A DNA stretch of 64,000 nucleotides from an uncultured Actinobacillus sp. Its GTDB lineage: Bacteria > Pseudomonadota > Gammaproteobacteria > Enterobacterales > Pasteurellaceae. Position 1 is the stretch's first letter. Every line of letters begins with the position of its first letter. The notes below the pieces were generated by a model. That model was not told the DNA's origin. It saw only the letters and a program-made list of their open reading frames with translations, and ran no database searches. The position numbers and the translations under genes were made by a program. The DNA is taken from positions 1 through 64,000 of the forward strand of contig NZ_CAMEFX010000005.1 in assembly GCF_945915845.1 (NCBI RefSeq), read 5' to 3'. Below are positions 663-4,411 of the stretch, in pieces.

Positions 663-1121
663 GAAACGCCTTATTCTTATGTTCATAATGTTTTAGATTT
701 TCTTGATCCGTTTGGGTTGGCTGTTTGTCCTACATTAATTAAAGATAACCTAGGAAGGATAAAAGAATCCAGTGCAACAATTACAAAAGAGATGATTGGA
801 ACGGGAACGAGAGTTAATAATAGTGCTAGAGCTTATGCAAAAGCAATGGGTAATCAAGGAGATGATGCAGGACATATTTTAGCTAAAATTCTAGGTGGTC
901 AAGGAGGAAAAGGAAATATATTCCCTCAATTAAAAGGAATTAATCGTGGGGATTATAGAGCATTTGAAAAACAAATAAGAGATTTGCTAAAAAGTGGCTC
1001 CGGTCCATTAGATCTTAAATGGAGTTTCACATATAACGGAAAAGGAACAAGACCGACAGGAATTCAATATGATGTATTCAAAGACGGAGTAAAAATATTA
1101 GATGAACTATTCCCAAACTAA
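663..1121 (+). pseudogene. Orphan Rhs C-terminal toxin tip, DNA/RNA non-specific endonuclease (Endonuclea_NS_2-like)
   Basis: The frame opens after a stop at 660-662 and reads ETPYSYVHNVLDFLDPFGLA, the hallmark end of an Rhs core just before the variable toxin. About 130 residues of toxin follow: DDAGHILAKILGGQGGKGN, FPQLKGINRGDYRAFEKQI, then TRPTGIQYDVF, matching the Endonuclea_NS_2 nuclease fold. The His of AGH and Asn of GNIFPQ are the expected active-site residues, so the domain looks intact. There is no Rhs core or ATG start upstream (only TTG at 717), so it is a displaced cassette that could act only after recombination onto an rhs gene. Its immunity gene follows 11 bases later. Confidence 0.7.
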
Positions 1122-1132
1122 AGAGGTGGCTA

Positions 1133-1531
1133 ATGGAAAATGCAAAAGAAATATTATTTAAATTTTTTGATGAAATGTATTTATGGAATAGAGAAGCTTA
1201 TCAATACACACAAGAAAATGGATTTGGAATTGAAACTCAAAAAGTATTACTTTCAAGCTTAGAACCCATAGTGAGAAAATTTTGCACTAAGAAAATTATC
1301 GACCAAATTTCTGTGAAATGTTCAGAAATACCAAAATATGATAAAAATAATCTTATTCTAGAAGGAACTGATGAAATTAATAAAAATAAAATAGCATTTT
1401 ACATACGAGAATTAAATAGGTCCAAGAGTCTTTATAAATATACTCTTATCCATAAAAATGGAGTATGGTTAATAGATAAAAAAGATTGGCTTGTAGAATT
1501 TGATAACAAATGGGAAAAACATTATATCTAA
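1133..1531 (+). CDS. Immunity protein for Rhs nuclease tip, NTF2-fold type
   Basis: A 132-residue soluble protein directly downstream of the nuclease tip, preceded by GAGGTGG at 1122-1128. Its C-terminal stretch, YKYTLIHKNGVWLIDKKDW, is the typical end of NTF2-fold immunity proteins, where the strand closes with W-LIDKK. A diverged paralogue lies at 1817-2203 with the same ending. It presumably binds and blocks the adjacent DNA/RNA endonuclease. Position and ending support the call; the specific family assignment is from memory. Confidence 0.65.
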   Translation: MENAKEILFKFFDEMYLWNREAYQYTQENGFGIETQKVLLSSLEPIVRKFCTKKIIDQISVKCSEIPKYDKNNLILEGTDEINKNKIAFYIRELNRSKSLYKYTLIHKNGVWLIDKKDWLVEFDNKWEKHYI

Positions 1532-1541
1532 TTATATACAT

Positions 1542-1635
1542 CCCCCCGATGGCGCTCGTCTCTGACGAGTGCCTATATCTCATATTTTAGATAAATTGTT
1601 TAGCCCCCCGTCTGGAGACGGGTGCTATCGGGGGG
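1542..1635. mobile_element. 94-bp MITE-like element with 5-bp target duplication
   Basis: The element begins CCCCCCGAT (1542-1550) and ends ATCGGGGGG (1627-1635), perfect 9-bp terminal inverted repeats. With mismatches the similarity extends to about 21 bp (pattern CCCCCCGATrGCrCyCGTCTC at each end). Each end also folds on itself (GCGCTCGTC with GACGAGTGC; CCCGTC with GACGGG). TACAT directly flanks both sides (1537-1541 and 1636-1640), as expected of a 5-bp target-site duplication. It has no coding capacity, so it is non-autonomous. I do not recognise the parental transposon. Confidence 0.65.
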
Positions 1636-1807
1636 TACATATCGAGAATTTGAAAAGTCAGTTCGCAAAATGTTAGAAAAACATGGTTCTTTAGACTTAA
1701 AGTGGAAATTTAATTATCCTAATGTAAATTCTACAAGACCAAATGAAATTATTTATGATGTCTTTCATGACGGAAAACTTTTAGATACTTTAACATTTAT
1801 AAATTAG
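1636..1807 (+). pseudogene. Decapitated second copy of the Rhs nuclease tip
   Basis: The frame TYREFEKSVRKMLEKHG continues to LDLKWKFNYP, then STRPNEIIYDVFHDG. It is clearly homologous to the last 55-60 residues of the intact nuclease tip at 717-1121 (DYRAFEKQIRDLL, LDLKWSF, TRPTGIQYDVF). The front half, including the AGH catalytic His, is missing. The remaining frame abuts the MITE-like insertion, which supplies a spurious upstream start in the raw frame (1622). The fragment cannot be an active nuclease. It marks an earlier truncated cassette, possibly kept because its immunity gene follows 9 bases later. Confidence 0.75.
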
Positions 1808-1816
1808 AGATTTTAT

Positions 1817-2203
1817 ATGACAGAAAAAGATACTTTTATATGTTTCATGAACGAAATGCACAAATGGGAAAGTTATGCCACTAATATTGGATTAGCGAAC
1901 AATCTTGATGAGCATAGAGAAATAGTAAGAAATATATTTAATAAATATTGCACGCCAAAAGATAGAAAAAGAGGGAAACCCAATATTCTATCTGCAAGTT
2001 CTATTTCGAGCTATGATTTATCAACACAACCAATATATAACATTGAATACAAAACTAAAAAAACAATCATATATACAAAACAAAAAAATAAAGCTGAAAA
2101 TAATTTTAGATATACATTAATATTAAAAAATGATAAGTGGCTTATAGATAAAAAAGAAATCAGCTATAATAACGGCGAAAGTTGGGAGAGCTCTATATTA
2201 TAA
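1817..2203 (+). CDS. Second NTF2-fold-type immunity protein
   Basis: A 128-residue soluble protein with [18 protein letters not shown] near the C terminus, the same signature as the immunity protein at 1133-1531. The two diverge elsewhere, so they likely protect against different alleles of the nuclease. It follows the decapitated second nuclease tip, preserving the toxin-then-immunity order. The gene seems intact although its toxin is dead, as is common in orphan immunity arrays. The stop codon overlaps the start of an Rhs core scrap. Confidence 0.65.
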
Positions 2204-2339: not shown

Positions 2340-2371
2340 TTGACATTGATTCATAAAACCCCCAATATACT
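2340..2371 (+). promoter_or_regulatory. Candidate promoter for the tandem-repeat RNA
   Basis: A perfect -35 hexamer TTGACA lies at 2340-2345. TATACT at 2366-2371 is 20 bases on, longer than ideal. The overlapping AATATA at 2364-2369 gives an 18-base spacer. Transcription would start near 2376, just before the structured repeats. Confidence 0.5.
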
Positions 2372-2374
2372 CAT

Positions 2375-2565
2375 AGGTAGCGTAGCCTAAATAACGCAAT
2401 GAGGTTGTTGGCTCATCGTCAATCTGAAACTAATCTAGAATGTAAAGGTCTAGCGGTGGCAGGCACCAGAAAACTCTGATATAAATCTAGGATGCAAAGG
2501 CCTAGCGGTGGCAGACACCAGAATAAACCAACAATTAAGCCCACACGTTTGTGGGCTTAATGCTT
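2375..2565 (+). ncRNA. Structured RNA with two tandem 40-nt repeats (candidate RNA antitoxin or leader RNA)
   Basis: Two 40-nt units (2433-2472 and 2485-2524) differ at only four positions. Each forms two hairpins. Unit 1 pairs CTAGA (2435-2439) with TCTAG (2449-2453) around ATGTAAAGG. Unit 2 pairs CTAGG (2487-2491) with CCTAG (2501-2505) around ATGCAAAGG. The A-T to G-C change is compensatory. Each is followed by GGTG-CACC with a 5-nt loop. Upstream, TAGG-CCTA (2374-2389) and ATGAG-CTCAT (2399-2415) may also pair. A promoter precedes it and an 11-bp terminator-like stem ends it, 20 bases before the next gene. I do not recognise the family; the layout resembles type III antitoxin RNA. Confidence 0.6.
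2535..2560 (+). terminator. Perfect 11-bp stem after the tandem RNA
   Basis: TTAAGCCCACA (2535-2545) and TGTGGGCTTAA (2550-2560) form a perfect stem with loop CGTT. The following sequence is only moderately T-rich, so termination may be partial. Partial read-through would let some transcripts reach the gene starting at 2581. Confidence 0.6.
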
Positions 2566-2580
2566 TCTGAAGGAATAATA

Positions 2581-3018
2581 ATGAGTACTAAATTTGTGGA
2601 TATAAAAGACCAAATTTTAATGAGTTAAAAAAATTTGAATATCTTTTAACTCACATTGAAATGTGCAGCAGTTTTCCTTAATAAACACTTTATTAATAAA
2701 GAAATGATTTATAGTACTAATAATGAATCCATTTCTCTTATATTTAAACGTAGTAATTTTATGCACCTATGCGGAATTCAATATAGTGAAGGTGCCTCAG
2801 AATTCTTTAATCTAGCCTTAATAAAACAAATCGATCTTAGCAAAATTTTTATTAAAACCGATGGGACAACATTTCAAAAATTATCAGTGTTAAGCTCAAT
2901 AAATTCTTTACTTACTTCAGATATCACATTGACCGAAGGTGTTTTTTATCTAAATTTGTCTTTTGATAAAGCGTTAAAAACAAGAAAAAAAGTCTTTGCA
3001 CTAACATTAGTGCAATAA
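2581..3018 (+). pseudogene. PBECR4-like nuclease gene, apparently doubly frameshifted
   Basis: ATG at 2581 follows GAAGGAA (2569-2575) and reads MSTKFVDIKDQI before stopping at 2626. The -1/+2 frame from about 2616 continues FNELKKFEYLLTHIEMCSS until 2680. The original frame then resumes with FLNKHFINKEMIYS and runs to the stop at 3016-3018. Two compensating 1-base indels would restore about 150-160 residues. The C-terminal part contains FMHLCGIQY, DGTTFQKLSVL and FYLNLSFDKALKT, which I associate with PBECR4 (a Barnase/EndoU/ColicinE5/RelE-like nuclease fold). Its place just after a repeat RNA suggests a toxin partner. Alternatively the real product is only 2656-3018 (TTG start), or the indels are assembly errors. 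Confidence 0.55.
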
Positions 3019-3111
3019 TGATAATACATTTATTCCGCTGTCATTGATTAATCTTAAATTTATAAATAATTTTCCAAACGGAAATAAAGTAACTCATATT
3101 AAGTCCATTCA

Positions 3112-3140
3112 TTTACAAGATAGCACAGAAATAATATACT
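3112..3140 (+). promoter_or_regulatory. Promoter for the second small RNA
   Basis: TTTACA (3112-3117) and TATACT (3135-3140) are separated by exactly 17 bases, a good sigma-70 promoter. No open reading frame follows, only structured sequence ending in a terminator. Confidence 0.6.
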
Positions 3141-3146
3141 TATAGT

Positions 3147-3300
3147 TCATCAGTGTGAAGAGTACTGAATGATTGGGAAAATGTCCCCTCGATCATTTAA
3201 AAGGCAGGGATCCGAGTACTTGTACGAACCAATCTTAGATTGGGTTTGTTAGGCGCGGCTAACAAAGTATGTAATGGGGAGCTTATGCTCCCCTTCATTT
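3147..3300 (+). ncRNA. Candidate ~150-nt small RNA with four stem-loops
   Basis: Between a good promoter and a strong terminator there is no ORF but a chain of helices. AATGAT/ATCATT (3168-3173 with 3192-3197) is extended by GGGA/TCCC (3175-3178 with 3184-3187) and enclosed by AGTACT/AGTACT (3161-3166 with 3215-3220). AACCAATC pairs with GATTGGGTT (3227-3246, one bulge). TTTGTTAG pairs with CTAACAAA (3245-3266). The terminator stem follows. The unpaired AAAAGG near 3199-3204 echoes the AAAGG loops of the upstream tandem RNA. It is not 6S, tmRNA or RNase P as far as I can judge; the family is unknown. Confidence 0.6.
3276..3300 (+). terminator. Rho-independent terminator of the second small RNA
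   Basis: GGGGAGC (3276-3282), loop TTAT, GCTCCCC (3287-3293), then TTCATTTTT. Confidence 0.8.
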
Positions 3301-3323
3301 TTCTAATGATCTTTATAAAAAAG

Positions 3324-3414
3324 TTACAGCATATTTACTGATTCTCTCAGCATTTCTACATCATGTTCAATATAGCCAAGTGTTACGCTGATATCCTTGT
3401 GTCCTAACAGCTTC
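3324..3414 (-). pseudogene. Tyrosine recombinase C-terminal tail
   Basis: The last 30 or so codons of the minus-strand frame read KLLGHKDISVTLGYIEHDVE and end in SVNML. This is the C-terminal active-site region of a phage-type integrase: the LLGH motif and, nine residues on, the nucleophilic Tyr of GYIEH. The rest of the recombinase is missing. The frame is fused in phase to a transposase fragment at about 3414. It marks the remains of an integrated element. Confidence 0.65.
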
Positions 3415-3738
3415 TGAACCAAATAATCTTTCACATCGTTGACCGCACTTTCAAAATCAACATAACCACCATATGCCATCCACTCATATTTAAAACTTCT
3501 AAACCAACGCTCCATCGGGGCATTATCCCAGCAGTTGACCCGTCGGCTCATACTTTGTGTTAACTTGTGGTTTTGCACACATTGGGTAAATTGCTTGCTC
3601 CCATAAATACTGCCTTGGTCTGAGTGAAACAACATCGTTTTCCTACGTTTGGTCTGCAACATAGCGTGATTTAATGCATCGATAACCCATTGCGCATCGT
3701 GGTGTCGACTCAGTTTCCAACCAACCACTTGGCGGTCT
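3415..3738 (-). mobile_element. IS3-family OrfB transposase remnant (truncated at both ends)
   Basis: The minus-strand frame contains DRQVVGW, MLFHSDQGSIYGSKQF, LTQSMSRRVNCWDNAPMERW and FRSFKYEWM, the DDE core of an IS3-family transposase (second Asp in HSDQG, Glu in PMERW). Its front end is cut at about 3738, beside the stop codon of the antitoxin gene. Its back end is fused to an integrase tail at about 3414. The first Asp and the usual YNxxRPH ending are absent, so it is inactive. The same IS appears at the left window edge. Confidence 0.8.
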
Positions 3739-3741
3739 AAC

Positions 3742-4107
3742 TTAAGCCTGTAATTCGTTAATAAGCTCAGGTTTGCGGTGTAGTAGGTCTAACAGCGTTT
3801 TGGCGGCACCACTTGGTTTGCGTAAGCCTTGTTCCCAAGAGCGAAGGGTCGCAACTGAAATACCGAGCTTCTCCGCAAATTTAGGTTGTGATAATTTGGC
3901 GGCATGACGAGTTTCAACAATAGGGGAGACTTCAATTTGCGTTAAGCGAACGCCTGTAAAGTCGCCTTGTTTGACAAGTTCTAGAGTATCTCGTAAATCT
4001 TCTGCGTGTTCAGCCATTTCTGGATCGTCTTCAATCACAGCCTGAATGATAGTTTCTATATTCCAATGTTTGGCTTTTTCTTGAATTTTTTGATGAATCT
4101 TATCCAT
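3742..4107 (-). CDS. HTH antitoxin of a HigBA-like type II toxin-antitoxin pair
   Basis: A 121-residue protein with a helix-turn-helix of the Xre/HigA kind in the C-terminal half: LSQPKFAEKLGISVATLRSW followed by EQGLRKPSGAAKTLL, about residues 72-108. The N-terminal half is helical and acidic, probably the toxin-binding part. Its start overlaps the toxin gene's 3' end by 8 bases, giving the toxin-first order typical of higBA and NadS-type pairs. It should neutralise the RelE-fold toxin and autorepress the operon. Its stop codon abuts the IS remnant, but the protein looks complete. Confidence 0.8.
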   Translation of the reverse strand: MDKIHQKIQEKAKHWNIETIIQAVIEDDPEMAEHAEDLRDTLELVKQGDFTGVRLTQIEVSPIVETRHAAKLSQPKFAEKLGISVATLRSWEQGLRKPSGAAKTLLDLLHRKPELINELQA

Positions 4108-4411
4108 TTTTCGCTCCTGTTAATTGTTTTAAATCTTGGTTTGATAAGTTTTCTTTTTCATTTTTGGTGTAAATATCCATCATAATGACAACGCCATCTT
4201 CTAGTAAGTTGAAGTAGATTACTCTTACTCCTCCTCTTTTTCCCTTGCTATTTGCTTGCCAACGAACTTTGCGTAAGCCGTCAGCATGTTTTATGACATC
4301 TCCAACTAAAGGATTTTGGGCAATATAACTAAAAAATTCGAGGCGTTCGTCCTCTGTCCAAATCTCTCTGGCTTTACGCTGAAATTTCTGATATTCGATA
4401 ATGGTATACAT
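4100..4411 (-). CDS. RelE/HigB-family mRNA interferase toxin
   Basis: A 103-residue basic protein. The centre DGLRKVRWQANSKGKRGGVR followed by VIYFNLLEDGVVIMMDIYTK matches the RelE/HigB2-like fold, with basic residues (KGKRGG) before the central strands and the end LSNQDLKQL. It would cleave mRNA on the ribosome when unopposed. It is the first gene of the pair, preceded by GGAGAG seven bases before the ATG and by a good promoter at 4435-4462. The overlap with the antitoxin implies translational coupling. It is intact. Confidence 0.8.
   Translation of the reverse strand: MYTIIEYQKFQRKAREIWTEDERLEFFSYIAQNPLVGDVIKHADGLRKVRWQANSKGKRGGVRVIYFNLLEDGVVIMMDIYTKNEKENLSNQDLKQLTGAKNG

What the first reader, a model, noticed from the sequence alone, without database searches (positions are those of the whole stretch)
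3112..3300. Second orphan small RNA with its own promoter and terminator
A TTTACA-17-TATACT promoter, about 150 nt of dense secondary structure without an ORF, and a 7-bp GC-rich terminator with T-rich tail. At least four helices can be drawn. It lies directly downstream of the PBECR4-like gene and next to a recombinase tail, and shares an AAAGG motif with the upstream tandem RNA. It might be a partner, a regulator or a phage-derived RNA.
Basis: partly seen in the sequence, partly recalled or inferred. Interest (0 to 1): 0.65.

Follow-up and report, generated by a model that had tools for sequence, protein, structure and literature searches.

The report
Orphan RNA partner of toxin-like phosphoribosyltransferase
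The small RNA is real: it is a stray copy of an undescribed, knot-shaped RNA that elsewhere sits right behind the gene for one particular toxin-like enzyme, on mobile DNA of many bacteria, and a few phages carry the RNA without the enzyme, so it most likely works as an RNA antidote.

Summary
The RNA is confirmed; the proposed partner is not. Window 3147-3300 holds a member of a conserved RNA family absent from Rfam: an H-type pseudoknot, two hairpins and a terminator, supported by compensatory changes. It is not PBECR4's partner: of nine PBECR4-bearing Pasteurellaceae genomes six lack it, whereas the upstream tandem RNA accompanies PBECR4 in all nine. Its partner elsewhere is a ComF/ShosT-like phosphoribosyltransferase (PRTase) without an adjacent protein antitoxin: the RNA lies about 20-220 nt downstream in all 24 loci found through the protein (Pasteurellaceae including ICEhin1056, Enterobacterales, Pseudomonas, Acinetobacter, Vibrio, Betaproteobacteria, Agrobacterium); two loci found through the RNA also have it. 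In the window the PRTase is gone, a frameshifted PBECR4 gene stands in its place, and the called promoter lies inside that coding sequence. Pseudomonas phages Milchi and Astolliot and two phage contigs carry the RNA without a detectable PRTase, as expected of antitoxin mimics. Best reading: a type III-like toxin/RNA-antitoxin or defence module with a new toxin class and reversed gene order; here an orphan RNA on an ICE remnant. Family and pairing are well supported (about 0.95); antitoxin action is inferred (about 0.6). No expression data exist.

The parts
3147..3302 (+). predicted orphan small RNA, from the inferred start to the end of the terminator tail
   Evidence: conserved family in 16-17 Pasteurellaceae loci; R2 match 3166-3265, 70.8 bits; transcription itself not shown
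3112..3140 (+). promoter-like TTTACA-17-TATACT, inside the 3' end of the PBECR4 coding sequence
   Evidence: same position relative to the RNA in G003, but may be a by-product of coding
3168..3197 (+). pseudoknot helix P1 (3168-3173 with 3192-3197)
   Evidence: two-sided changes across relatives
3183..3211 (+). pseudoknot helix P2 (3183-3187 GTCCC with 3207-3211 GGGAT)
   Evidence: 13 distinct helices, 94% standard pairs against 69% shuffled
3229..3243 (+). hairpin P3 (CCAATC-TTA-GATTGG)
   Evidence: paired in relatives in a slightly shifted register
3248..3263 (+). hairpin P4 (GTTAG...CTAAC) with the conserved loop GC(A)GCGG
   Evidence: three pairs with two-sided changes; loop conserved into Alphaproteobacteria
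3276..3302 (+). intrinsic terminator
   Evidence: a wholly different hairpin at the same place in G039
2581..3145 (+). PBECR4 nuclease pseudogene standing where relatives have the PRTase gene; not the partner of the RNA
   Evidence: PF18813 match, stops and frameshift
2368..2570 (+). tandem-repeat RNA with terminator, the RNA that does go with PBECR4
   Evidence: present at all nine PBECR4-bearing genomes
3324..3480 (-). C-terminal remnant of the ICE tyrosine integrase, convergent with the RNA
   Evidence: Phage_integrase match; intact integrase and MobH relaxase at this place in relatives

Best explanation
The RNA is an orphan copy of the RNA half of a mobile two-part module: a toxin-like phosphoribosyltransferase (PRTase) gene followed about 20-220 nt downstream, on the same strand, by a pseudoknotted RNA of about 110-155 nt with its own promoter-like site and terminator. 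SHOWN by sequence: the RNA family, its pseudoknot and hairpins, its tie to one PRTase family in three classes of Proteobacteria, the swap of PRTase for PBECR4 in the window, and phage copies without PRTase. INFERRED: the RNA is made in excess and binds the PRTase, keeping it inactive, as the pseudoknotted antitoxins of type III toxin-antitoxin systems do. Loss of the RNA, with the mobile element or during phage takeover, would free the PRTase, which by likeness to ShosT would disturb nucleotide metabolism and stop growth. Phages that carry the RNA would neutralise the toxin by mimicry. No cognate PRTase remains in the window's genome, so this copy is a leftover, or an anti-addiction copy, on an ICE remnant.
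For: RNA directly downstream of the PRTase in all 8 Pasteurellaceae loci with a full-length relative and in all 16 protein-found plasmid or ICE loci examined elsewhere. Reverse test: an E. coli locus and an IMG/VR locus found through the RNA have the PRTase upstream. Negative controls (PRTase paralogue loci, PBECR4-only loci) have no RNA. The PRTase resembles the toxin ShosT, keeps its PRPP-site residues, and no protein neighbour recurs beside it. H-type pseudoknot with strong covariation, as in type III antitoxins (PMC5086642). Promoter-like site and terminator of its own. Orphan RNAs decay (5 of 9 with helix defects against 0 of 9, p = 0.03). Phages with the RNA and no PRTase, the situation known for ToxIN and phage PhiTE (PMC3475682). 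No antisense match to the PRTase 5' region, which speaks for protein binding.
Against: No transcript, toxicity or binding data. The layout differs from type III systems: single RNA copy, downstream of the toxin, separate promoter, and no known ribonuclease fold. Several orphan RNAs without PRTase stay well conserved (G117, G121, G000 copy on contig 50), which may mean another function. Loci are not all independent (the Serratia set and two Agrobacterium plasmids are close relatives). The decay test was made after the fact.
Confidence: 0.6

Rival explanations
1. The RNA is an obligate cofactor, guide, sensor or substrate of the PRTase (an active ribonucleoprotein, for example the sensing part of a defence system), not its inhibitor.
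For: The same strict pairing and conserved loops; ncRNA-PRTase partnerships exist in type III-A retrons, and PADLOC gives a weak PRTase_III-A match.
Against: Phage and orphan copies without the PRTase are hard to explain for a mere activator, easier for an inhibitor; no reverse transcriptase belongs to the module.
Confidence: 0.22
2. The RNA is an independent regulatory RNA of the ICE or plasmid (transfer, maintenance or host mRNA control) that merely sits beside toxin genes in an accessory-gene hotspot.
For: Conserved without the PRTase next to PBECR4, VapC, ParE, AbiEii or DUF6630 genes; often near the integrase and MobH relaxase.
Against: 24 of 24 PRTase loci have it, across unrelated plasmids and ICEs in three classes, while other neighbours change.
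Confidence: 0.12
3. The RNA controls PRTase synthesis by base pairing (type I-like antisense).
For: Same locus, separate promoter-like site.
Against: No better than shuffled pairing with the PRTase 5' region in 8 loci (z between -1.1 and 1.5).
Confidence: 0.04
4. The RNA is the partner or regulator of PBECR4.
For: Adjacent in the window, G003 and G115.
Against: Absent from six of nine PBECR4-bearing genomes, while the tandem RNA is at all nine.
Confidence: 0.02

Closest known systems
Type III toxin-antitoxin systems (ToxIN, CptIN, TenpIN)
   Same: Mobile toxin gene paired with a non-coding RNA that folds into an H-type pseudoknot; phage-carried RNA mimics are known for ToxIN (PMC5086642, PMC3475682).
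   Different: Toxin is a PRTase, not an endoribonuclease; RNA is single-copy, downstream of the toxin, with its own promoter-like site and terminator.
ShosTA / PsyrTA / RqlHI (PRTase toxin with DprA-like antitoxin)
   Same: PRTase toxin of similar fold and sequence; carried on mobile elements and tied to phage defence (PMC9122126).
   Different: No DprA-like protein antitoxin next to it; an RNA stands in that role.
Type III-A retrons (RT, ncRNA, PRTase)
   Same: PRTase effector kept together with a non-coding RNA; weak PADLOC match.
   Different: No reverse transcriptase in the module; only L038 has a retron RT nearby.
AvcID (type III-like, deaminase toxin with RNA antitoxin)
   Same: A metabolic enzyme rather than a ribonuclease as toxin, held by an RNA (PMC10511110 abstract).
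   Different: Different enzyme family; RNA relation not tested here.

Membership tests
Type III toxin-antitoxin system | non-coding RNA with pseudoknot fold encoded beside the toxin | tested here: met
   P1/P2 covariation and 24 of 24 pairing
Type III toxin-antitoxin system | antitoxin as tandem repeats upstream of the toxin, one promoter, terminator between | tested here: not met
   single RNA copy downstream, with its own promoter-like site
Type III toxin-antitoxin system | toxin is an endoribonuclease (ToxN-like) | tested here: not met
   PRTase by motif, profile and predicted fold
Type III toxin-antitoxin system | RNA neutralises the toxin by binding | not testable with these tools
   needs expression and binding assays
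ShosTA toxin-antitoxin system | PRTase toxin related to ShosT | tested here: met
   PADLOC ShosT E = 7.8e-8 for the L037 protein; ShosT second among PDB fold matches
ShosTA toxin-antitoxin system | adjacent DprA-like antitoxin gene | tested here: not met
   no recurring protein neighbour
Type III-A retron | reverse transcriptase and msr-msd RNA with the PRTase | tested here: not met
   RT near one locus only (L038)
Type I toxin-antitoxin system | RNA pairs with the toxin mRNA | tested here: not met
   no pairing above shuffles in the 5' region of 8 loci; rest of the mRNA not tested
Any Rfam 15 family | covariance-model match at or above the gathering score | tested here: not met
   none in the window or in seven loci with relatives

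The most novel reading that the evidence does not exclude
A previously undescribed addiction or phage-defence system: a ComF/ShosT-like PRTase held or directed by a dedicated pseudoknotted RNA, spread over Alpha-, Beta- and Gammaproteobacteria on ICEs (including the archetype ICEhin1056) and plasmids, and countered by phages that carry RNA mimics in their tRNA clusters.
Probability: 0.5. Interest if true: 0.88.

Novelty: new variant of a known kind. Interest (0 to 1): 0.8.

Why it matters
It names the likely partner of an orphan PRTase carried by ICEhin1056, the reference resistance-carrying ICE of Haemophilus. It would extend RNA-antitoxin logic to a PRTase, gives a covariance model that finds the RNA in three proteobacterial classes, and points to cultured phages (Milchi, Astolliot) whose RNA can be tested directly as an anti-defence mimic.

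Tried and rejected
PBECR4 partner: rejected. Shared AAAGG motif: chance. Antisense to the PRTase mRNA: no signal in the 5' region (an earlier attempt was faulty). Known Rfam RNA: none. Single-stranded DNA element such as oriT or an integron attC site: considered because GTTAGGC resembles an attC core and the RNA is often near the relaxase gene; set aside because the inverse core does not fit, G-U is the commonest outer P2 pair, and a terminator and promoter-like sites accompany it. Direct blastn of the window RNA in plasmids, phages and E. coli found nothing; the wider family appeared only through the protein. PRTase profiles in about 400 genomes of the order and 300 of the class gave almost nothing outside Pasteurellaceae, so the module is sparse. 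PRTase protein in the phage collection: none; in viral contigs by peptide patterns: none. Further viral-contig patterns found nothing. R1 matches below about 31 bits were treated as noise.

Full report
WHAT IS IN THE SEQUENCE. Window 3112-3140 reads TTTACA-17-TATACT and 3276-3293 is a 7-bp, GC-rich hairpin followed by a T-rich tail. The stretch between has no ORF of note and folds 2.5 s.d. better than its shuffles. Taken alone the promoter is not beyond chance: 18 such sites in 6 kb against 24.5 in shuffles. Both hexamers are codons of the PBECR4 gene, whose original frame ends at 3145 (read). That gene matches PF18813 but is frameshifted here.

A CONSERVED RNA FAMILY. The DNA query matched its own genome a second time (71%) and several other Pasteurellaceae; one relative in the same genus is identical over 145 nt. 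A covariance model (R1) gives 16 clear members in 140 Pasteurellaceae genomes and one decayed one. None matches Rfam. In a 15-sequence alignment 96% of the cells of the named structure are standard pairs, with 30 two-sided changes at 10 pairs; no shuffle of 500 reaches that, and no slid version comes near. The structure is an H-type pseudoknot (P1, P2), a middle hairpin (P3), a hairpin with a conserved loop (P4) and a terminator. One relative has a completely different terminator hairpin at the same place.

NOT THE PARTNER OF PBECR4. Nine of 140 genomes have PBECR4. At all nine the tandem RNA seen at window 2368-2570, with its terminator, stands upstream of it, in the layout of a type III toxin-antitoxin locus. 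The RNA of this finding is downstream in only three of them; most of the others have just a short terminator hairpin there, and the more sensitive model R2 finds nothing.

THE PARTNER. In eight Pasteurellaceae loci the gene directly upstream encodes a 234-244 aa protein with a PRPP-binding motif. It resembles the toxin ShosT (PADLOC E = 8e-8), and its predicted structure (pLDDT 85) has ComF and ShosT as best solved matches. These eight are all the full-length relatives of that protein in the 140 genomes, and all eight carry the RNA. Beyond the family, tblastn found relatives on plasmids and ICEs at 23-54% identity, among them ICEhin1056 itself. Each has an unannotated gap of 230 nt or more behind the PRTase, and the RNA model's best match in each locus is in that gap, on the same strand. 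Loci not used to build R2 scored 31-96 bits (Pantoea, Diaphorobacter, Agrobacterium, Cronobacter, Acinetobacter, E. coli, S. entomophila). The E. coli locus was found through the RNA alone and has an annotated phosphoribosyltransferase upstream. The tally is 24 of 24 loci found through the protein, plus two found through the RNA (L140, L145). The Serratia loci and the two Agrobacterium plasmids are close relatives, so independent cases are fewer.

COVARIATION ACROSS CLASSES. P2 reads GUCCC/GGGAU, GUCUC/GAGAC, GCCUC/GAGGC, GAUGC/GCAUC, GCGGC/GUCGC, GGCCC/GGGUC, GCUC/GAGC and others: 13 distinct helices, hand-read, with 94% standard pairs against 69% in shuffles, none of 5000 reaching it (an automatic extraction with some mis-anchored rows gives the same verdict). 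P1 changes likewise. At PRTase loci the RNA has promoter-like sites before it (p = 7e-6) and a terminator in 23 of 24 by the same scan; the 24th (G039) has an evident long hairpin.

WHAT HAPPENED IN THE WINDOW. In several Pasteurellaceae ICEs the RNA lies between an accessory gene and the convergent integrase, next to which is a MobH relaxase gene; ICEs of this kind use tRNA-Leu genes (PMC4908127). In the window, G003 and G115 the accessory gene is PBECR4; elsewhere VapC, ParE, AbiEii or DUF6630. The window's genome holds no PRTase of this kind, only a paralogue without the RNA. So the window RNA is an orphan. Orphans decay more: helix defects in 5 of 9 orphans and 0 of 9 PRTase-linked RNAs of Pasteurellaceae (p = 0.03; judged after the fact).

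PHAGE COPIES. Viral-contig scans found the RNA in a phage contig (L142: terminase, PhoH, tRNA genes) and in a contig whose reading frames look like phage structural genes (L144), with no detectable PRTase in either record. From L142, blastn reached Pseudomonas phages Milchi and Astolliot, where the RNA (64 bits) sits directly before a tRNA-Gln gene; neither 174-kb genome encodes the PRTase, while the positive control in the same search was found. Their pseudoknot has yet another sequence (CGUGG/CCACG and GUUC/GAAC, read directly). A phage RNA that imitates the antitoxin of a defence toxin is known for ToxIN (PMC3475682). That these phages are lytic is not tested here.

MECHANISM. The most economical reading is that the RNA holds a toxin-like PRTase in check by binding it, as pseudoknotted type III antitoxins do (PMC5086642). 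Shown: family, fold, pairing, swap, phage copies. Inferred: transcription, toxicity, binding, inhibition, defence. It works like a type III system but fails two of that family's defining features (tandem upstream repeats under one promoter; endoribonuclease toxin), so it is not filed as a member. That the RNA is an activator, sensor or substrate of the PRTase is not excluded.

LIMITS. The literature library is partial; no description of this pairing was found in it, which is weak evidence of novelty.

Noticed in passing
window 2368-3145: Tandem-repeat RNA plus terminator upstream of PBECR4, present in all nine PBECR4-bearing Pasteurellaceae genomes: a type III toxin-antitoxin-like layout with a PBECR4 toxin.
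   Followed up: partly
window 1549-1640: Long GC-rich inverted repeat (CCCCCCGATGGC ... GCTATCGGGGGG) between two toxin/immunity gene pieces.
   Followed up: no
window 717-2203: Orphan toxin tail (Endonuclea_NS_2) and two Imm-NTF2 immunity genes, followed by an Rhs-core-like fragment.
   Followed up: no
window 3324-3728 (-): Integrase C-terminus fused in frame to a transposase rve fragment.
   Followed up: no
window 3742-4411 (-): MqsA/HTH-type antitoxin and RelE-like toxin pair.
   Followed up: no
L122 4134-4837: The PRTase gene of ICEhin1056 (NC_011409.1) is split by a frameshift in the record, while a near-identical protein is intact in G081.
   Followed up: no
L044 about 3970-4087, L090 about 4000-4115, L092: Conserved element (ccctcacaccacgcaatt.ggagcggaaatgtcatactatc) with a hairpin terminator just upstream of PRTase-less RNAs.
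   Followed up: no
L105 102-716, L106 1237-1893 (-): PRTase paralogue near ICE genes, without the RNA.
   Followed up: partly
L136 1-3700: Agrobacterium PRTase-RNA pair stands near a CBASS phospholipase gene, a likely defence island.
   Followed up: no
L038 about 1480-2600: Type III-A retron reverse transcriptase gene about 1.1 kb upstream of the PRTase.
   Followed up: no
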